From Thermococcus onnurineus NA1 (GTDB lineage: Archaea; Methanobacteriota_B; Thermococci; Thermococcales; Thermococcaceae), in the NCBI RefSeq assembly GCF_000018365.1, contig NC_011529.1, positions 1,302,001-1,366,000 of the forward strand: a DNA stretch of 64,000 nucleotides. The letters run 5' to 3'. The notes under the pieces are model-generated. The model saw only the letters and a list, made by a program, of their open reading frames with translations, ran no database searches and was not told where the DNA came from. The position numbers and the translations under genes are program-made. This document shows, one piece after another, positions 15,212-50,257 of the stretch (its first letter is position 1; each line of letters begins with the position of its first letter).

Positions 15212-16012
15212 ATGATAGGCGTTGAAGAGATAACTAAGCTCGTGAGAGGAATCAGGTTAGAAAATGGATTTCCCGACAGCCCATTCAGGATAGACGAAGT
15301 TCGCTACGACCCCGAAGGAGACAAGCTTTTCATTATAGCCCACGATAGAACCGACAAGAGCGTCGTCATAGGCAACAGCTTCGTCATCGGAAAGCTGAAG
15401 GAAAGGCTCGGCGTCAGGCAGGTAACCGTTTACTCAAATCTTGACCTCGAGATAAAGCGGAGGAAGCTGAGGAAAAACGTGGAGCTCGTCAAAGGGACTG
15501 CTCTTGAGTTTCTCCTACCAATAATCGAGGCCGAGCTAAACTTCCCGCCGAGAAAGTGGCCCGAAGTTGAAGGAGACCTAAAAACGCTCGTTTTCCTCAG
15601 CTTCAACGCAAAGGCTTTGCTCGGCTTCGCAGAGAGGCTCAACCTCCCATACGAGGCCGTCGGAATACGCTACGCGTTCCCGAAGATGAAATACGAGCCA
15701 ATTGAGGGCGAACCAATCGAAGTTCTCTTCCCTGACGAGGAAAAGCTCCTGAACCTCGCGAAGGAGAGAAAAGCAAAGCTTGTTCTGGCCGATTTTCCAT
15801 TTGATCTGAAGTTTAAAGACGGAATAGCACTCCTCAATCCCTTCCGCTTCCTACACATAGGCTTCTTCGAGCTGAAGTACCTGTTTGGCTTCGAGAAGCC
15901 CGTGGTGTACGATAAAAAGGCCCTCGTGGATTTTGTAATAGGCCTGACCTATGAGGGCCTGATGGAATCAACGGACGGTGCTAACTTAATCTGGAGGATG
16001 TGGCGGCGATGA
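15212..16012 (+). CDS. Conserved protein of unknown function
   Basis: A 266-residue soluble, charged protein that I do not recognise. The N-terminal half reads as an alpha/beta domain (MIGVEEITKLVRGIRLENG, IIAHDRTDKSVVIGNSFVIGKLKERLG), and a basic stretch IKRRKLRKNVELVKG follows. ATG 15212 was chosen because AAGGTGGT lies just upstream; a longer frame would run back through the divergent promoter region. Its stop overlaps the next start (ATGA at 16009), so it is translationally coupled to a nucleotide kinase-like gene. Confidence 0.75.
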   Translation: MIGVEEITKLVRGIRLENGFPDSPFRIDEVRYDPEGDKLFIIAHDRTDKSVVIGNSFVIGKLKERLGVRQVTVYSNLDLEIKRRKLRKNVELVKGTALEFLLPIIEAELNFPPRKWPEVEGDLKTLVFLSFNAKALLGFAERLNLPYEAVGIRYAFPKMKYEPIEGEPIEVLFPDEEKLLNLAKERKAKLVLADFPFDLKFKDGIALLNPFRFLHIGFFELKYLFGFEKPVVYDKKALVDFVIGLTYEGLMESTDGANLIWRMWRR

Positions 16013-16581
16013 TAGTCGGCGTGGTTGGCAAGATAGCGGCCGGGAAGACAACGGTGGCGAAGTTCTTTGAGGAGAGGGGCTTCTGTAGAGTCAGCTGCAG
16101 TGACCCGCTTATAGACTTGCTCGCCCACAACGTCGAGGACTACTCGTGGATTCCGGAGCTGCCAGAGCAGGCCGAGCCCACAAGGGAGAAGCTGATAGAG
16201 TTCGGTAAGTATCTTAAAGACAAATACGGCGGCGATATACTCATCAGGCTCGCCATAGACAAGAAGAGGCACTGCAAGAATATAATCATAGATGGCGTCC
16301 GCTCTCGGGAGGAAATCGAGGCGATAAAGCGCTTTGGGGGAAAGGTCATCTACGTCGAGGCAAAGCCTGAGATAAGGTTCGAGAGACTGGTAAGGAGGAA
16401 GGCAGGAAAGGATAAGAGCATCAAAAGCTTCGAGGACTTTAAGAGGATGGATGACGCCGAAGAGGAGCTGTACCAGACTTCAAAGCTGAAGGACATGGCG
16501 GATTACGTGGTGGTGAACGAGGGAACTCTGGAAGAGCTCCGTCGAAGGGTCGAGAAGATCCTAGAGAGACTAAAGATTTAA
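16009..16581 (+). CDS. P-loop kinase related to dephospho-CoA/nucleoside kinases
   Basis: About 190 residues with a Walker A at the N-terminus (VGVVGKIAAGKTT). The kinase-type features are a lid-like FERLVRRKAGKD region and NIIIDGVRSREEIEAIK, typical of proteins annotated as dephospho-CoA kinase-related. The archaeal dephospho-CoA kinase belongs to an unrelated family, so that name should not be taken literally. ATG 16009 makes a clean ATGA overlap with the gene upstream; GTG 16000 is an in-frame alternative. Confidence 0.75.
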   Translation: MIVGVVGKIAAGKTTVAKFFEERGFCRVSCSDPLIDLLAHNVEDYSWIPELPEQAEPTREKLIEFGKYLKDKYGGDILIRLAIDKKRHCKNIIIDGVRSREEIEAIKRFGGKVIYVEAKPEIRFERLVRRKAGKDKSIKSFEDFKRMDDAEEELYQTSKLKDMADYVVVNEGTLEELRRRVEKILERLKI

Positions 16582-16604
16582 ATCCCAGAATATTTCCTTT
16601 TCTT

Positions 16605-18897
16605 ATGATGAGAATCCTCGAACAACAATTTGGGGATAAGTTTATTGGAAGAACCGAAGAGCTAAGGAGACTTACCAAGATTATTCACAACAGAGATAAG
16701 AACATTATTTTAGTTACTGGAGAGAGGGGAATAGGGAAGACAAATTTTCTTAAAGTTGCAGCTAAGCAATTTGAAGAGCAACAATATAAGGTAGAGTATT
16801 TTCATGGAGGATTAATCCAGGAAGAAGTAGAAGAACATTGGTTTGGATCATTCATAAAACGATTAACCTCCCTTTCACTGCCGGTAATTGGAGGCGGTCT
16901 TGGATGGGAAGAAAAGCCTACAACTGGAAAAATTTATTCTTATCTTTCCAAGCTAAAAAAACGAACAGTAATATTCATTGAGGATGCTCATAAGTTAGAT
17001 AGACAATTTTTAGAGTTAATCCAAATAATTAGTGAAATCAACCCTAGTATTTTCTTCGTATTGGAGGGACCAATAGAATGGAGCAAGAAGATAAATTTCA
17101 AACCGGGGGGATATTCTGTAATTCGTCTAAGAAGGCTAACCCAAGAACAAATACAAGAGCTTGTTACTAAAATATTCCCTCAGCTCCCTCCAAACATCGT
17201 GTCAATAATTACAAACTTGTCTGAAGGCATCCCATACGTTGCAAGAGTTCTGGCATATATATGCAACAAAAAGAACTCGGAAGAAGAGATGATAAAGTTC
17301 CTACTCACCCTAGAAGATCCTGAAACTCGAACTAGCCTTGATAAAATTCACCAAGAAATTTTAGATAGCCTCTCAATTGAAGCTCGCGAATTGCTCAAAA
17401 GACTGGCATTTGCCCCTGAACACCTAACGCTTAAGCTAATAAATGCTTTTGGAAGAGGTATCGAAAATTTAGATGATGCTTTTCGTGAATTAAGGGAGAG
17501 GGGAATCCTCATCCAAGAAGAGTTACAATTTGATCTAGAGGTCTACCGCATATATCACTCCCTTTTTGAAGTATTCATCCGAGACCAGTACCCTCTCACT
17601 TCCAAAGCGATAGCTGAGACGTACAGAAAAGCAACTAAGTATCTAAATTCAGAATATAGCTTGGATGAGATTTATTTTGAAAATTTGATGTTAATTTTAG
17701 GAATCATGGAGCTCGAAATAACGAAAAAAATAGGATATGAAAAAATACTCACTCATATAATGGCCGAAATAAAGGATCCCTCTGTTCTCTTAAGAACTGC
17801 CAAGGAATATTGGCTACAAGGATATCCAGACAAAAGCTTAGGAATTTTGTCTAAGTTACTAGAAATAATAGACGAAAAGGAGGATCCAATACTACACATA
17901 CTCATGTTACAACATATGGGCGTTGCTTATCGCCTCATTGGAGAGATAGATAAAGCACTAACTGCTCACAAAGAAGCCCTAAGAATAAGCCGTAGTCTCA
18001 GAAAGAGGAATAAAGAAAAAGATAAAGACAAAGAAATTGAAATGTTAATTTCCCAACAGTACATAAACATTGGAAACATATACTTAATGAAGAAGGAACT
18101 AGACAAAGCTGAAGAATCCTTTAGAAAAGCCCTTGAAATCAGTGAAAAAATTGAGGATGAAGAGAGACAAGTTTCAGCCATTTTATCTTTAGGAAACATA
18201 CAGAAGGCAAAAGGAAACATTAAGAAACAATTGGAATTGTACTTAAAAGGCCTTAAGTTGCTCAATAATCTAGAAAGGAATCCTTCTACATACCTAGATC
18301 TTGATGAGATACAGAGAAAAAAAGGGAATAGCATACTTGGGAATTAGTGAAGCATACCATTATATGGGTAACAAAGACAAAAGTGTGGAATACATGATTC
18401 TAGCACTTAATGAACTTAAAGAAAATGGGTATGCCGAAGGACTCTTCCAAGCTATACTCACCTTGGGGAACATGTTTAGACAGGAAGGAAATTTTGTGTT
18501 ATCAATAGCATGTTACAAGTTTTTGATTAATATTTCACAGCAATTCAACATAAAATCTCCTACGATGACTCTAGCATCCGAAATATTTCTAGAAATGATC
18601 GAAACTGCAATTTTACGTAAGGTTATTACGATTGATATAAAAAATTACATCATGAGTAATGTTTTTTCTGTTCTGGATACATCACTTCTTGGTTTTAACT
18701 TATTAGATGAGTACGAGTTAATAATAGAAGAGACTTTAAATCGTATTTCCAACTTGCCATATCTTGAATACAGTGAGAGATTAGCAGAGGACATTATGGA
18801 TGCTTATTTAGAAGTAGAAGAGAATCCTGAAATTGTATCGGTAATCTCCCACATTTGGGCAAATCCCAGTGAATTAGCAAAATTGTTAATGTGGTGA
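16605..18897 (+). pseudogene. AT-rich STAND-type ATPase with TPR repeats, frameshifted
   Basis: The first frame (16605-18347, 580 residues) holds an archaeal AAA/STAND ATPase: FIGRTEELRRL, Walker A GERGIGKT at 39-46 and Walker B VIFIEDAH near 122-129. TPR repeats follow from about residue 430 (MGVAYRLIGEIDKAL, YINIGNIYLMKKELDKA, ILSLGNIQKAKGNIKKQ). It stops early, and the TPR continues at once in another frame to 18897 (GIAYLGISEAYHYMGNKDKS, ILTLGNMFRQEGNF). Removing one A from the A7 run at 18317-18323 joins both into about 763 residues. The whole stretch is visibly AT-rich with AGA/ATA/AAA codons, unlike its neighbours, which suggests recent acquisition. Such proteins act as signal-sensing switches; its trigger is unknown. 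Confidence 0.8.
18317..18323 (+). other. A7 run at the frameshift point
   Basis: Seven consecutive A residues follow AGAG and precede GGG. With six A residues the frame reads RKKGIAYLGISEAY and the TPR pattern continues. With seven, translation ends 24 bases later at TAG. Runs of this length are prone both to sequencing error and to RNA polymerase slippage. Confidence 0.75.
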
Positions 18898-18903
18898 TGC
18901 TCC

Positions 18904-19479
18904 ATGAATCTCCTCATCATTGCTCCCTGTTTGCTCAGCCCGTTTTACGTCTATAGGGGCCCAAAGGAGAAGGAGTACAAGACGGCGGAGGAACTGAGAA
19001 AGCTTTTCGCTCAGCTTGGCGATGAGTGGCAGGTTCTGGCCTACCCATGCCCCGAATACGAGCTGATAGGCTGGCCAAGACCGCCCATGAGCAGGGAAGC
19101 TTACATGCACCTCGGCATGGTAGAGAAGGCAAAAACGATAGCCGATTTCATAGGCCGGGTTCTGACTGAGGAGATGCCCGAGAAAGTGGTTTTTCTTGGG
19201 GTTAGGGGTTCCCCAACGTGCGGCGTCTTCCACACGAGCTCGAGTGACCCGGAGAGCTATCCCTACAAGGCTGTCCAGGAGTTCTTCTACCTGAGCAAGG
19301 AGGAGAGGCTGAAGCGCTCGAAGGAGCTGGTGATGGAGCAGAACTTCAGGCTCGTCCAGATGCCCGGAATACTGTTTGAAATCCTAATGGCGAGGTTCCC
19401 GGAGGCGGTTTACGTCGAGTTTGATAAGGAGGATATCGAGGATAGTATTGAAAGGGTAAAAGAAGCCCTTTGGAACTAA
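18904..19479 (+). CDS. DUF523-like cysteine protein, function unknown
   Basis: A 191-residue protein. Its N-terminus ([17 protein letters not shown]), the [19 protein letters not shown] stretch and [19 protein letters not shown] recall DUF523, whose members share early CLL and later SP(S/T)CG motifs; a related family has been labelled a predicted secreted protein, yet no signal peptide is seen here. The paired cysteines suggest a metal, Fe-S or thiol site. The ribosome site GGTGATG lies inside the end of the AT-rich upstream gene. GC-rich codon usage returns here. Confidence 0.65.
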
Positions 19480-47238: not shown

Positions 47239-48528
47239 ATGATGAGAGCAATAGGGGTCATCAGAAAATCCAGGCGCGAGAGGATAAGCCGGGAAGAGTT
47301 CGAGGAGCTGTTAAGGAGTGCCGGCTACGAGGTAGTGGCGATTCTCGAACAGAACCGTGAAGAGCATCCTAAGTACAACATCGGAAAGGGAAAGCTAGAG
47401 GAGCTCAAAGAGCTCGTAAGGGAGCTTCAGCCGGATAAGGTCATCTTCGCCAACAAGCTCACGCCAAGCCAGGCCTACAACCTTTGGAAGGAGCTGAGGG
47501 TGGAAATAATAGACAAGTGGCAGCTGGTTCTTGAAATATTCGAGAGGCGCGCGCATTCAAAAGAGGCAAAGCTCCAGGTGGAGCTAGCGAGCCTGCAGTA
47601 CGAGGTTCCCCTCGTGAAGGAGGCCATCAGGAGAATAAAGCTCGGCGATAGGGCAGGATTCAAGGGAATGGGTGAGTATCAGACCCAGCAGTACCTTAAG
47701 CACATCCGCTACCGCATGGGTAAGATAAGGAAGGAGCTGGAAAGGGTAAAGGCAGACCGAGAGGTTAAAAGGAAGCGCAGGGAAGAGGTTGGCTTCATCC
47801 TGCTCGCCTTAGCGGGCTACACGAACGCCGGAAAGTCAACACTCCTCAACACCCTCGCGGGGGAGGAGATAGAGGCGAGAGACCAGATGTTCACCACCCT
47901 GGACACGACGACGAGGCGCTTCAAGCTCGGCGGTAAGAGGGTTCTCGTCACCGACACGGTCGGCTTCATTGACGGCCTCCCGCCGTTTATCGTTGAAGCC
48001 TTCCACTCCACGCTGGAGGAGATAGTTAAGGCCGATATAGTCCTGCTCGTTCTCGATGTGAGCGAGCCCTGGCCAGAAATACGGAGGAAGTTCCTAGCAT
48101 CGCTCAACGTCTTGAGGGAGCTTAAGGCCCTGGATAAGCCCATGGTAGTCGTCCTCAACAAGAGGGACCTGACGAGCGAGGAGGACGTTAAAGATAAGGC
48201 TGAGAGGATAATAGAGATAGTCGAGGAGAGGGGGATAAACGTCTCCCGTGTCGTTTCCATCTCGGCCAAGTTCGGTCAGTTGGAGGAGCTTTATGGGGCG
48301 CTGGAAGAGGTGGTACTAACCCTGCCCAAGTACGGGGCCTTTGAGATAACCGTGAGGGAGCCTGAGAAAGTTCCTCAGGTCATGGCTCTGATAAATGCTA
48401 TTGGTGAGGTTTTGTCCGTTGAGTACGGTGAGGAGACGAAAATAGAAGCCTACATCCAGACGGGAATGATAAAGGAGCTGACGAGGCTGGGGGTCGAGAT
48501 AAAGCGGCTAAACCAGCCCCACCAATGA
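47239..48528 (+). CDS. hflX: HflX-family ribosome-associated GTPase
   Basis: A 429-residue GTPase. The N-terminal HflX domain (YNIGKGKLEELKELVRELQP, VIFANKLTPSQAYNLWKEL) precedes the G domain with GYTNAGKSTLLN, the DTVGFIDGLP switch and LNKRDLTSE. HflX dissociates or rescues ribosomes under stress. GGATATAAAGG centred near 47216 would put the transcript start at the ATG itself, so the message is probably leaderless. Overlaps the PiT gene by 21 bases convergently. Confidence 0.92.
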   Translation: MMRAIGVIRKSRRERISREEFEELLRSAGYEVVAILEQNREEHPKYNIGKGKLEELKELVRELQPDKVIFANKLTPSQAYNLWKELRVEIIDKWQLVLEIFERRAHSKEAKLQVELASLQYEVPLVKEAIRRIKLGDRAGFKGMGEYQTQQYLKHIRYRMGKIRKELERVKADREVKRKRREEVGFILLALAGYTNAGKSTLLNTLAGEEIEARDQMFTTLDTTTRRFKLGGKRVLVTDTVGFIDGLPPFIVEAFHSTLEEIVKADIVLLVLDVSEPWPEIRRKFLASLNVLRELKALDKPMVVVLNKRDLTSEEDVKDKAERIIEIVEERGINVSRVVSISAKFGQLEELYGALEEVVLTLPKYGAFEITVREPEKVPQVMALINAIGEVLSVEYGEETKIEAYIQTGMIKELTRLGVEIKRLNQPHQ

Positions 48529-49470
48529 GAAAGCCTTGAAGATTCCAAGGGCAATGAATATCGCCGTCAGCGGCGTCGCTACCCAGCCGAAGACTATGTC
48601 CTTTATGACGGACTTATCAACGCCCTCTCCCGCGATGAGACCGACTCCTATGACTCCACCGACTATGGACTGGCTGGAGCTCACCGGGAGACCGAAGATA
48701 TTGGCAAGGCTCACAGCTATTGCCGAACCGAACTGTGCTGCGAAGGCCGAGATCGGGCCGAGGGCGGTTATCTTCTTTCCAACAGTGTGCATCACCGCGT
48801 AGCTAAAAGTTAGAGCGCCTATCGAGAGCGCTATCGCGCCAAAAATTCCGGCAATCTTCGGCTCCACGAAGCCGGCACCGACCAGAGGTCCAGATGCATT
48901 GGCGACCTCGTTGGTGCCGAAGTTAAAGGCCATGTACGAGCCGCCGAGTATAGCGAGAGCCTTGTAGAGGGCCTCAATCGTAGAGACGCTTTTTATGCTC
49001 GAAATAACCTTGGAATAGAACTTGTACAGGATTATCGCCAGAATCCCAGACAGTATGGGCGAGACAACCCACGCAGATGCTATTTTAACGAGCGTATACC
49101 AGTTGATTGGAGCATCGACAGCAAGACCAACTCCTATAACACCGCCAACTATGGCCTGAGTCGTGGAAACCGGAAGGCCCTTGACGGTGGCTATCGTGAC
49201 CCAGACACCAGCGGCGAGAAGTGCTATTACCGCCATCTCCATCGTGAGGTAGCCTTCGGGGACGATGCCCTTGCCGACGGTTTTCATAACTTTGTATCCC
49301 TTCAGATAGGCACCCATCAGGACGAATATCGCTATGGTGAGGGTTGCTTGCCGGAAGCTGAGTATTCCTGCACCTACTGCCGTCCCCATAGCGTTGGCTG
49401 AGTCGTTCGAACCTATGTTCCAAGCTATGTAGAATGCCACTGCTATTGCTGCTATCACTAGCCCGTCCAT
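48508..49470 (-). CDS. PiT-family inorganic phosphate transporter
   Basis: A 320-residue permease with about ten helices and the two PiT signatures: YIAWNIGSNDSANAMGTAVG near the N-terminus and YMAFNFGTNEVANASGPLVG in the second half, each followed by GLPVSTTQAIVGGVIGVGL-type loops. It imports phosphate with protons or sodium. ATG 49470 follows GGTGATCC, and TATATAGACTATATAGG lies at the promoter. The PhoU-like partner is encoded at 39942-40589. Confidence 0.94.
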   Translation of the reverse strand: MDGLVIAAIAVAFYIAWNIGSNDSANAMGTAVGAGILSFRQATLTIAIFVLMGAYLKGYKVMKTVGKGIVPEGYLTMEMAVIALLAAGVWVTIATVKGLPVSTTQAIVGGVIGVGLAVDAPINWYTLVKIASAWVVSPILSGILAIILYKFYSKVISSIKSVSTIEALYKALAILGGSYMAFNFGTNEVANASGPLVGAGFVEPKIAGIFGAIALSIGALTFSYAVMHTVGKKITALGPISAFAAQFGSAIAVSLANIFGLPVSSSQSIVGGVIGVGLIAGEGVDKSVIKDIVFGWVATPLTAIFIALGIFKAFSLVGLV

Positions 49471-49696
49471 AAGGATCACCTATATAGTCTATATATCTCC
49501 CTTTAGACTGTGGCTTAAAAAATTTTGCCAATGACTGTACGAACTTTTTTCGAGAAATGATGCCATAATTGTTCCATTGACGACTGACAAAGTTCATGCC
49601 TACCCAAAGACATCTGCCGAAGGCTGCTTAACCCAATACCGAAACTTAAATAAATGCAATAGATGAATAAGTTTTGACAAATTTAAGGAGGCAGGA

Positions 49697-50257
49697 ATGA
49701 TGATAGAGATTCGTTTTCACGGTAGGGGTGGACAGGGTGCAGTTACGGCTGCCAACATATTAGCTTCAGCCGCTTTCCTTGAGGGCAAATACGTCCAGGC
49801 GTTCCCGTTCTTCGGAGTTGAGAGGCGTGGAGCACCTGTTACGGCATTCACCAGGATCGACGAGAAGCCCATCAGGATTAAGACCCAGATCTACGAACCT
49901 GACATAGTCGTCGTCCTTGATCCGTCCCTCCTCGACACTGTCGATGTCACCGCAGGTCTCAAGGACGGTGGAATCGTTATCGTCAACACCGAGAAAAGCA
50001 AGGAAGAAGTCCTCGAGAAGCTCAAGAAGAAGCCCGCCAAGCTTGCTCTGGTCGACGCCACCACCATAGCCCTTGAGATACTCGGCCTCCCGATCACTAA
50101 CACCGCCATTCTCGGTGCCGTCGCCAAGGCCACTGGCGTTGTCAGCCTTGAGCACGTCCAGAAGGCCATCCAGGACGTCTTCTCCGGAGCCCTCGGCGAA
50201 AAGAATGCCAAGGCTGCAGAAGAGGCCTTCAACAAGACTGTCATTTACGAACTCTGA
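49697..50257 (+). CDS. porG: Pyruvate/2-ketoisovalerate ferredoxin oxidoreductase, shared gamma subunit
   Basis: A 186-residue gamma subunit ([51 protein letters not shown]). In Pyrococcus one gamma serves both POR and VOR, which fits a single copy ahead of the two delta-alpha-beta sets here. GGAGG precedes ATG 49697; the second ATG (49700) gives the known Pyrococcus N-terminus. CTTAAATAAATG at about 49645 is the TATA box. Confidence 0.93.

What the first reader, a model, noticed from the sequence alone, without database searches (positions are those of the whole stretch)
16605..18897. AT-rich STAND/TPR ATPase broken at an A7 run
Two frames share one TPR solenoid and join if one A is removed. 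This could be a sequencing error, a decayed gene, or a gene read by polymerase slippage on the A run, which would produce both a long and a truncated sensor.
Basis: partly seen in the sequence, partly recalled or inferred. Interest (0 to 1): 0.6.

Follow-up and report, generated by a model that had tools for sequence, protein, structure and literature searches.

The report
Frameshifted orphan STAND–TPR gene in Thermococcus
In the archaeon Thermococcus onnurineus, a recently acquired gene for a molecular-switch sensor protein has its reading frame broken by one base in a run of seven A's, most likely an ordinary frameshift mutation in a dispensable gene, with no sign that the cell uses it on purpose.

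Summary
ORF1 (16605-18347, 580 aa) stops 22 bases after an A7 run (18317-18323), and the +1 frame then stays open for 190 codons (18325-18897). The read-through keeps a 91-residue TPR repeat register exactly across the break, so this was one gene of 763 codons: P-loop ATPase, helical region and five TPRs. It is STAND-like, with no effector domain recognised.

The window is Thermococcus onnurineus NA1. The gene is an AT-rich orphan: no relative in 60 congeners, 114 phylum genomes, plasmids, phages or viral contigs. It fills a slot that in related species is empty or holds vapBC pairs.

Programmed slippage is unsupported: A7 is short, two more A7 runs lie in frame in the same ORF, and no orthologue shows conservation.

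Best reading (about 0.6): a real single-base frameshift in a young, dispensable acquired gene, giving a truncated sensor or a new pseudogene. A-run indels occur in this strain, and its type of mismatch repair does not correct indels. Low interest; new member of a known kind.

The parts
16577..16583 (+). TATA-like TTTAAAT at the 3' end of the kinase gene, placed for a near-leaderless transcript starting at the ATG
   Evidence: sequence; TTTAAA-like box also at the kinase end in congeners; inferred, no TSS data read
16605..18347 (+). ORF1, 580 aa: STAND-like ATPase, helical region, three TPRs
16719..16742 (+). Walker A, GERGIGKT (residues 39-46)
   Evidence: inspection; AAA_16 and AAA_22 matches
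16965..16985 (+). Walker B, TVIFIED (residues 121-127)
   Evidence: inspection
17226..17234 (+). GIP, candidate STAND GxP motif (residues 208-210)
   Evidence: inspection
16955..16961 (+). in-frame A7 run
17724..17730 (+). in-frame A7 run
17898..17999 (+). TPR1
18051..18152 (+). TPR2
18171..18272 (+). TPR3
18317..18323 (+). A7 run at which the frame breaks
18345..18347 (+). premature stop TAG
18325..18897 (+). orphaned C-terminal part in the +1 frame, 190 codons
18325..18426 (+). TPR4, begins directly at the junction
18445..18546 (+). TPR5
16000..16581 (+). left neighbour, kinase-like, conserved in congeners
18904..19479 (+). right neighbour, TudS-related, conserved in congeners

Best explanation
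A horizontally acquired AT-rich gene for a STAND-like ATPase with a five-TPR sensor sits in a cargo slot of the T. onnurineus chromosome and has suffered one real single-base indel, most simply by replication slippage at the A run. NA1 therefore encodes a 580-aa protein (ATPase, helical region, three TPRs) and an orphaned 190-codon tail. Shown: one ancestral frame, break at the A run, foreign composition, lack of relatives, variable slot. Inferred: that the change is in the living strain, that it is recent (no second lesion in 2.3 kb), and that the short protein has lost sensor function. By analogy with PH0952, where the ATPase is held by the fourth TPR, loss of TPR4 onwards would remove one autoinhibitory contact; the product may be inert, unstable or deregulated. 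It may revert at a low rate.
For: Frame and repeat continuity. No relative in 60 congeners, 114 phylum genomes, plasmids, phages or viral contigs. Neighbours conserved, with 9-12 bp, vapBC, vapBC remnants or a surface-protein gene between them in congeners. The window is NA1: the published TON_1475-1476 deletion 1351559-1351609 falls in the matching intergenic gap at window 49559-49609. Two single-A deletions called by resequencing of evolved lines fall exactly on the first base of an A7 (832564) and an A6 (1527982) of this genome, so A-run indels occur here and were detectable; none is listed at 1320317-1320323. EndoMS/NucS mismatch repair cannot correct indels (PMC8228993).
Against: No raw reads seen. 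The resequencing papers compared with 'the parent strain' and may have discarded differences already present in the parent. An otherwise perfect frame also fits a reference error in an intact gene. Expression of either product is unknown.
Confidence: 0.6

Rival explanations
1. Reference error: the strain has six A residues and the gene is an intact 763-codon STAND-TPR protein.
For: Only one lesion, in a homopolymer, with the frame otherwise perfect and the repeat register kept. [quoted passage not shown]
Against: Illumina plus PacBio resequencing of strain 156T and PacBio of WTF-156T, with Sanger checks, list 10 and 11 changes and none here, while A-run contractions at an A6 and an A7 were called. 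Not decisive, since parental differences may have been subtracted.
Confidence: 0.17
2. Regulated slippage: RNA polymerase slips on the A7 run, or the ribosome shifts +1 on it, so that a short and a full-length sensor are both made on purpose.
For: An A run lies exactly at the transition; an A6 transcript gives 763 aa and A8 gives 575; bypass of indels in repeats of 3-8 bases is known from laboratory drift (PMC3812077).
Against: Seven A residues, against about nine in most bacterial cases (PMC1088944). Two other A7 runs in the same ORF are read in frame. No orthologue, so no conserved transition. No Shine-Dalgarno-type stimulator and only a modest hairpin downstream. The -1 heptamer type would enter the wrong frame, which stops at 18329.
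Confidence: 0.1
3. Slow phase switch: the A run changes length by replication errors and populations hold both on and off forms, as in bacterial contingency genes.
For: An A7 to A6 change reached high frequency elsewhere in the genome in one lab line; no indel-correcting mismatch repair expected.
Against: One A7 change among roughly 120 runs in two lines of about 2,000 generations is about 2e-6 per run per generation, slow for a contingency gene; A7 is short for one; no selection for switching shown.
Confidence: 0.08
4. Split gene: the tail is translated on its own, by a start inside the overlap or by restart after the stop, and assembles with the N-terminal part.
For: ATG at 18304 before the run and at 18364 just after the stop, both in the tail frame.
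Against: No Shine-Dalgarno match at either start; the break lies inside a continuous TPR solenoid; a start at 18364 would cut TPR4 in half.
Confidence: 0.05

Closest known systems
PH0952 of Pyrococcus horikoshii (PDB 6MFV), STAND ATPase with a TPR sensor
   Same: Order of parts: AAA-type P-loop ATPase, helical region, TPR sensor; also Thermococcales
   Different: Not matched by phmmer against the PDB. PH0952 has an N-terminal ArsR-like effector, six TPRs, and is conserved in over 10 Thermococcales (PMC6468293); this protein starts directly with the ATPase, has five TPRs when read through, and is an orphan.
MalT
   Same: STAND ATPase with a TPR sensor
   Different: TPR_MalT (PF17874) scores 29.6 bits (33.8 in the read-through) against a cut-off of 45; no DNA-binding domain found.
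Archaeal ATPase_2 (PF01637) proteins
   Same: ATPase_2 match just above cut-off (34.0 against 33.2); weak hits in Thermococcaceae lie in the ATPase region
   Different: Hits cover only parts of the first 230 residues at E 1e-5 or weaker.
Thermus thermophilus dnaX transcriptional slippage
   Same: A run in a coding region at a point where the frame can change
   Different: Nine A residues and about 50% shorter product demonstrated there (PMC1088944); seven here, no conservation, and two other A7 runs in the same ORF are in frame.

Membership tests
STAND NTPase | Walker A and B of an AAA-type P-loop NTPase | tested here: met
   AAA_16 45.5 bits, cut-off 32.6; AAA_22 34.6, cut-off 27; motifs by eye
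STAND NTPase | GxP motif and winged-helix domain after the ATPase | tested here: inconclusive
   GIP at residues 208-210 by eye; no winged-helix family matched; AF2 models unusable (pLDDT 38 and 49)
STAND NTPase | Repeat-based sensor | tested here: met
   TPRs, 91-residue double-repeat period
STAND NTPase | Effector domain at one end (general, not universal) | tested here: not met
   No effector domain matched in Pfam or NCBIfam; hence called STAND-like
MalT family | TPR_MalT domain above cut-off | tested here: not met
   29.6 and 33.8 bits against 45
PH0952 family | Detectable sequence homology to PH0952 | tested here: not met
   6MFV not among phmmer matches of the ATPase part at E up to 10 nor in the best 60 of the read-through; profile comparison not run
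Known anti-phage STAND systems | Match to a PADLOC model over its length | tested here: not met
   Only partial weak hits over the P-loop region, PDC-S27 3e-6 and PDC-S20 5e-6
Programmed slippage gene | Frame transition and slippery run conserved in orthologues | not testable with these tools
   No orthologue found
Programmed slippage gene | Run of about nine or more A or T | tested here: not met
   Seven; the length is from bacteria
Programmed slippage gene | Mixed-length transcripts and a full-length product | not testable with these tools
   needs cDNA reads and peptide spectra
Frameshift pseudogene or truncated allele | Frame-disrupting change present in the organism's DNA | tested here: inconclusive
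   Reference shows it; two resequencing reports list no difference there; reads not seen

The most novel reading that the evidence does not exclude
Thermococcus RNA polymerase (or ribosome) slips on this A7 often enough that the gene makes both a short sensor lacking TPR4-5 and a full-length one, the short form lacking a sensor-ATPase brake and so setting the trigger level of the switch.
Probability: 0.07. Interest if true: 0.6.

Novelty: new member of a known kind. Interest (0 to 1): 0.22.

Why it matters
If it is a plain frameshift, it is a small example of cargo decaying in a chromosomal slot, and of A-run indels in an archaeon whose mismatch repair does not handle them. If slippage were shown, it would be two sensor lengths from one archaeal gene; the abstract of PMC8037382 says recoding in Archaea is unequivocal only for selenocysteine/pyrrolysine readthrough and for -1 frameshifting. 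The strain is cultured and genetically workable, so one amplicon and one cDNA test would settle it.

Tried and rejected
Orthologue searches in genus, order/family and phylum genomes, GTDB contigs, plasmids, phages and IMG/VR gave nothing usable; the one GTDB contig hit (L003) is a 39-residue P-loop match in a Bacteroidaceae MAG. AF2 without relatives gave pLDDT 38 and 49, not interpretable, so no fold search was made. A first read-through code (AGCA) failed because the word also occurs at residue 160; TAGT worked but changes four residues at the junction, so exact joins were made in scripts. No paper in the library mentions a TON_144x tag; supplementary TSS and RNA-seq tables could not be read. 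Chance openness of the tail was rejected. The idea that three A7 runs in one gene is itself a signal was rejected, since the gene's codon use predicts 1.6. Ribosomal -1 shifting was rejected because that frame stops at once.

Full report
Identity and observation. The window is bases 1302001-1366000 of a single-contig genome of 1,847,607 bp. A published 51-bp deletion at 1351559-1351609 between the sodium/phosphate symporter and pyruvate/ketoisovalerate oxidoreductase genes (TON_1475-1476) of Thermococcus onnurineus NA1 (PMC4791640) falls at window 49559-49609, between a permease-like ORF (48508-49479) and an oxidoreductase-like ORF (49697-50257). Two published single-A deletions fall exactly on the first base of A runs at the same coordinates. 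The window is therefore NA1 with unshifted coordinates, and the A7 run is genome 1320317-1320323.

One gene, one break. ORF1 spans 16605-18347, and after the run the +1 frame is open to 18897. An open stretch of 190 codons in DNA with 8-11% off-frame stops is not chance. Composition and GC3 match on both sides. The read-through has TPRs at residues 432, 483, 523, 574 and 614: spacings 51/40/51/40, a 91-residue double repeat. The first 80 residues of the tail align best, without gaps, exactly 91 residues upstream and second best 182 upstream. The join is exact to the residue, so the two parts were one gene.

What it is. Residues 12-78 match AAA_16 and 30-149 AAA_22 above their cut-offs; Walker A (GERGIGKT), Walker B (TVIFIED) and GIP at 208-210 are visible (inspection). 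TPRs follow. This is the layout of STAND ATPases with a TPR sensor, of which PH0952 from Pyrococcus horikoshii has a solved structure (PMC6468293). Sequence search does not join it to PH0952 or MalT and no effector domain is recognised. 'Works like a STAND' is reasonable; 'is a member of the MalT or PH0952 family' is not supported. Structure prediction without relatives failed.

Where it sits. The gene is at about 36% GC in a window of about 53% GC. It has no relative in 60 congeners (E 1e-10) or 114 other genomes of the phylum (E 1e-8), nor in plasmids, phages or viral contigs; looser searches reach only the P-loop region of other ATPases. Its neighbours, a kinase-like gene and a TudS-related gene, are conserved in the genus. 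Between them congeners have 9-12 bp, a vapBC pair (PIN PF01850 with AF2212-like PF01954), a different pair with PIN_2 (PF10130), remnants, or in one genome a predicted surface-protein gene. In occupied slots a TTTAAA-like box lies at the kinase end, and a GGTGA-like site often precedes the TudS-related gene, so incoming cargo may gain a promoter; this is inference.

Why the frame is broken. Error: two resequencing studies of evolved NA1 lines found single-A deletions at an A6 and at an A7 but list none here. That is moderate evidence that the A7 is real, weakened by the possibility that parental differences were subtracted. Slippage: A7 is below the roughly nine-base length at which selection against slippage shows in many bacteria (PMC1088944); two other A7 runs in the same ORF are read in frame; no conservation can be shown; no Shine-Dalgarno-type stimulator is present. 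Bypass in short repeats is known (PMC3812077), so a trace of full-length product is possible without being programmed. Mutation: A-run indels are seen in this strain, and EndoMS/NucS repair, characterised in Thermococcus, does not correct indels (PMC8228993). A rough estimate from one A7 change among about 120 runs in two lines of about 2,000 generations is 2e-6 per run per generation: enough to create and occasionally revert this lesion, too slow for classic phase variation.

Consequence. The stop leaves three TPRs. In PH0952 the ATPase touches the fourth TPR as part of double autoinhibition (PMC6468293). If the analogy holds, the 580-aa product lacks a sensor brake; if not, it is a dead or unstable fragment. 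Neither is tested.

Verdict. Most likely it is an ordinary frameshift in an acquired orphan gene. Interest is low unless cDNA shows site-specific A6 transcripts.

Noticed in passing
window 16582-18903; congener loci L036-L064, L086-L092: The gap between the kinase-like and TudS-related genes is a variable cargo slot across Thermococcus: empty (9-12 bp), two unrelated vapBC types, vapBC remnants, a surface-protein gene, or this STAND-like gene.
   Followed up: partly
window 1-64000: Outside this gene the 64 kb holds no A7/T7 run at all, where dinucleotide shuffles expect about 12 in the window, suggesting avoidance of long A/T runs in this genome.
   Followed up: partly
L077, genome 832564-832570: A published adaptive-evolution mutation of NA1 (A deletion between TON_0901 and TON_0902) is a contraction of an A7 run, a direct example of A7 instability in this strain.
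   Followed up: yes
L090 (G024:C3:111780-112580), 224-478: The PIN_2 toxin ORF in the same slot is only 84 aa in this congener against 143 aa in another, so cargo decay in the slot may not be unique to T. onnurineus.
   Followed up: no
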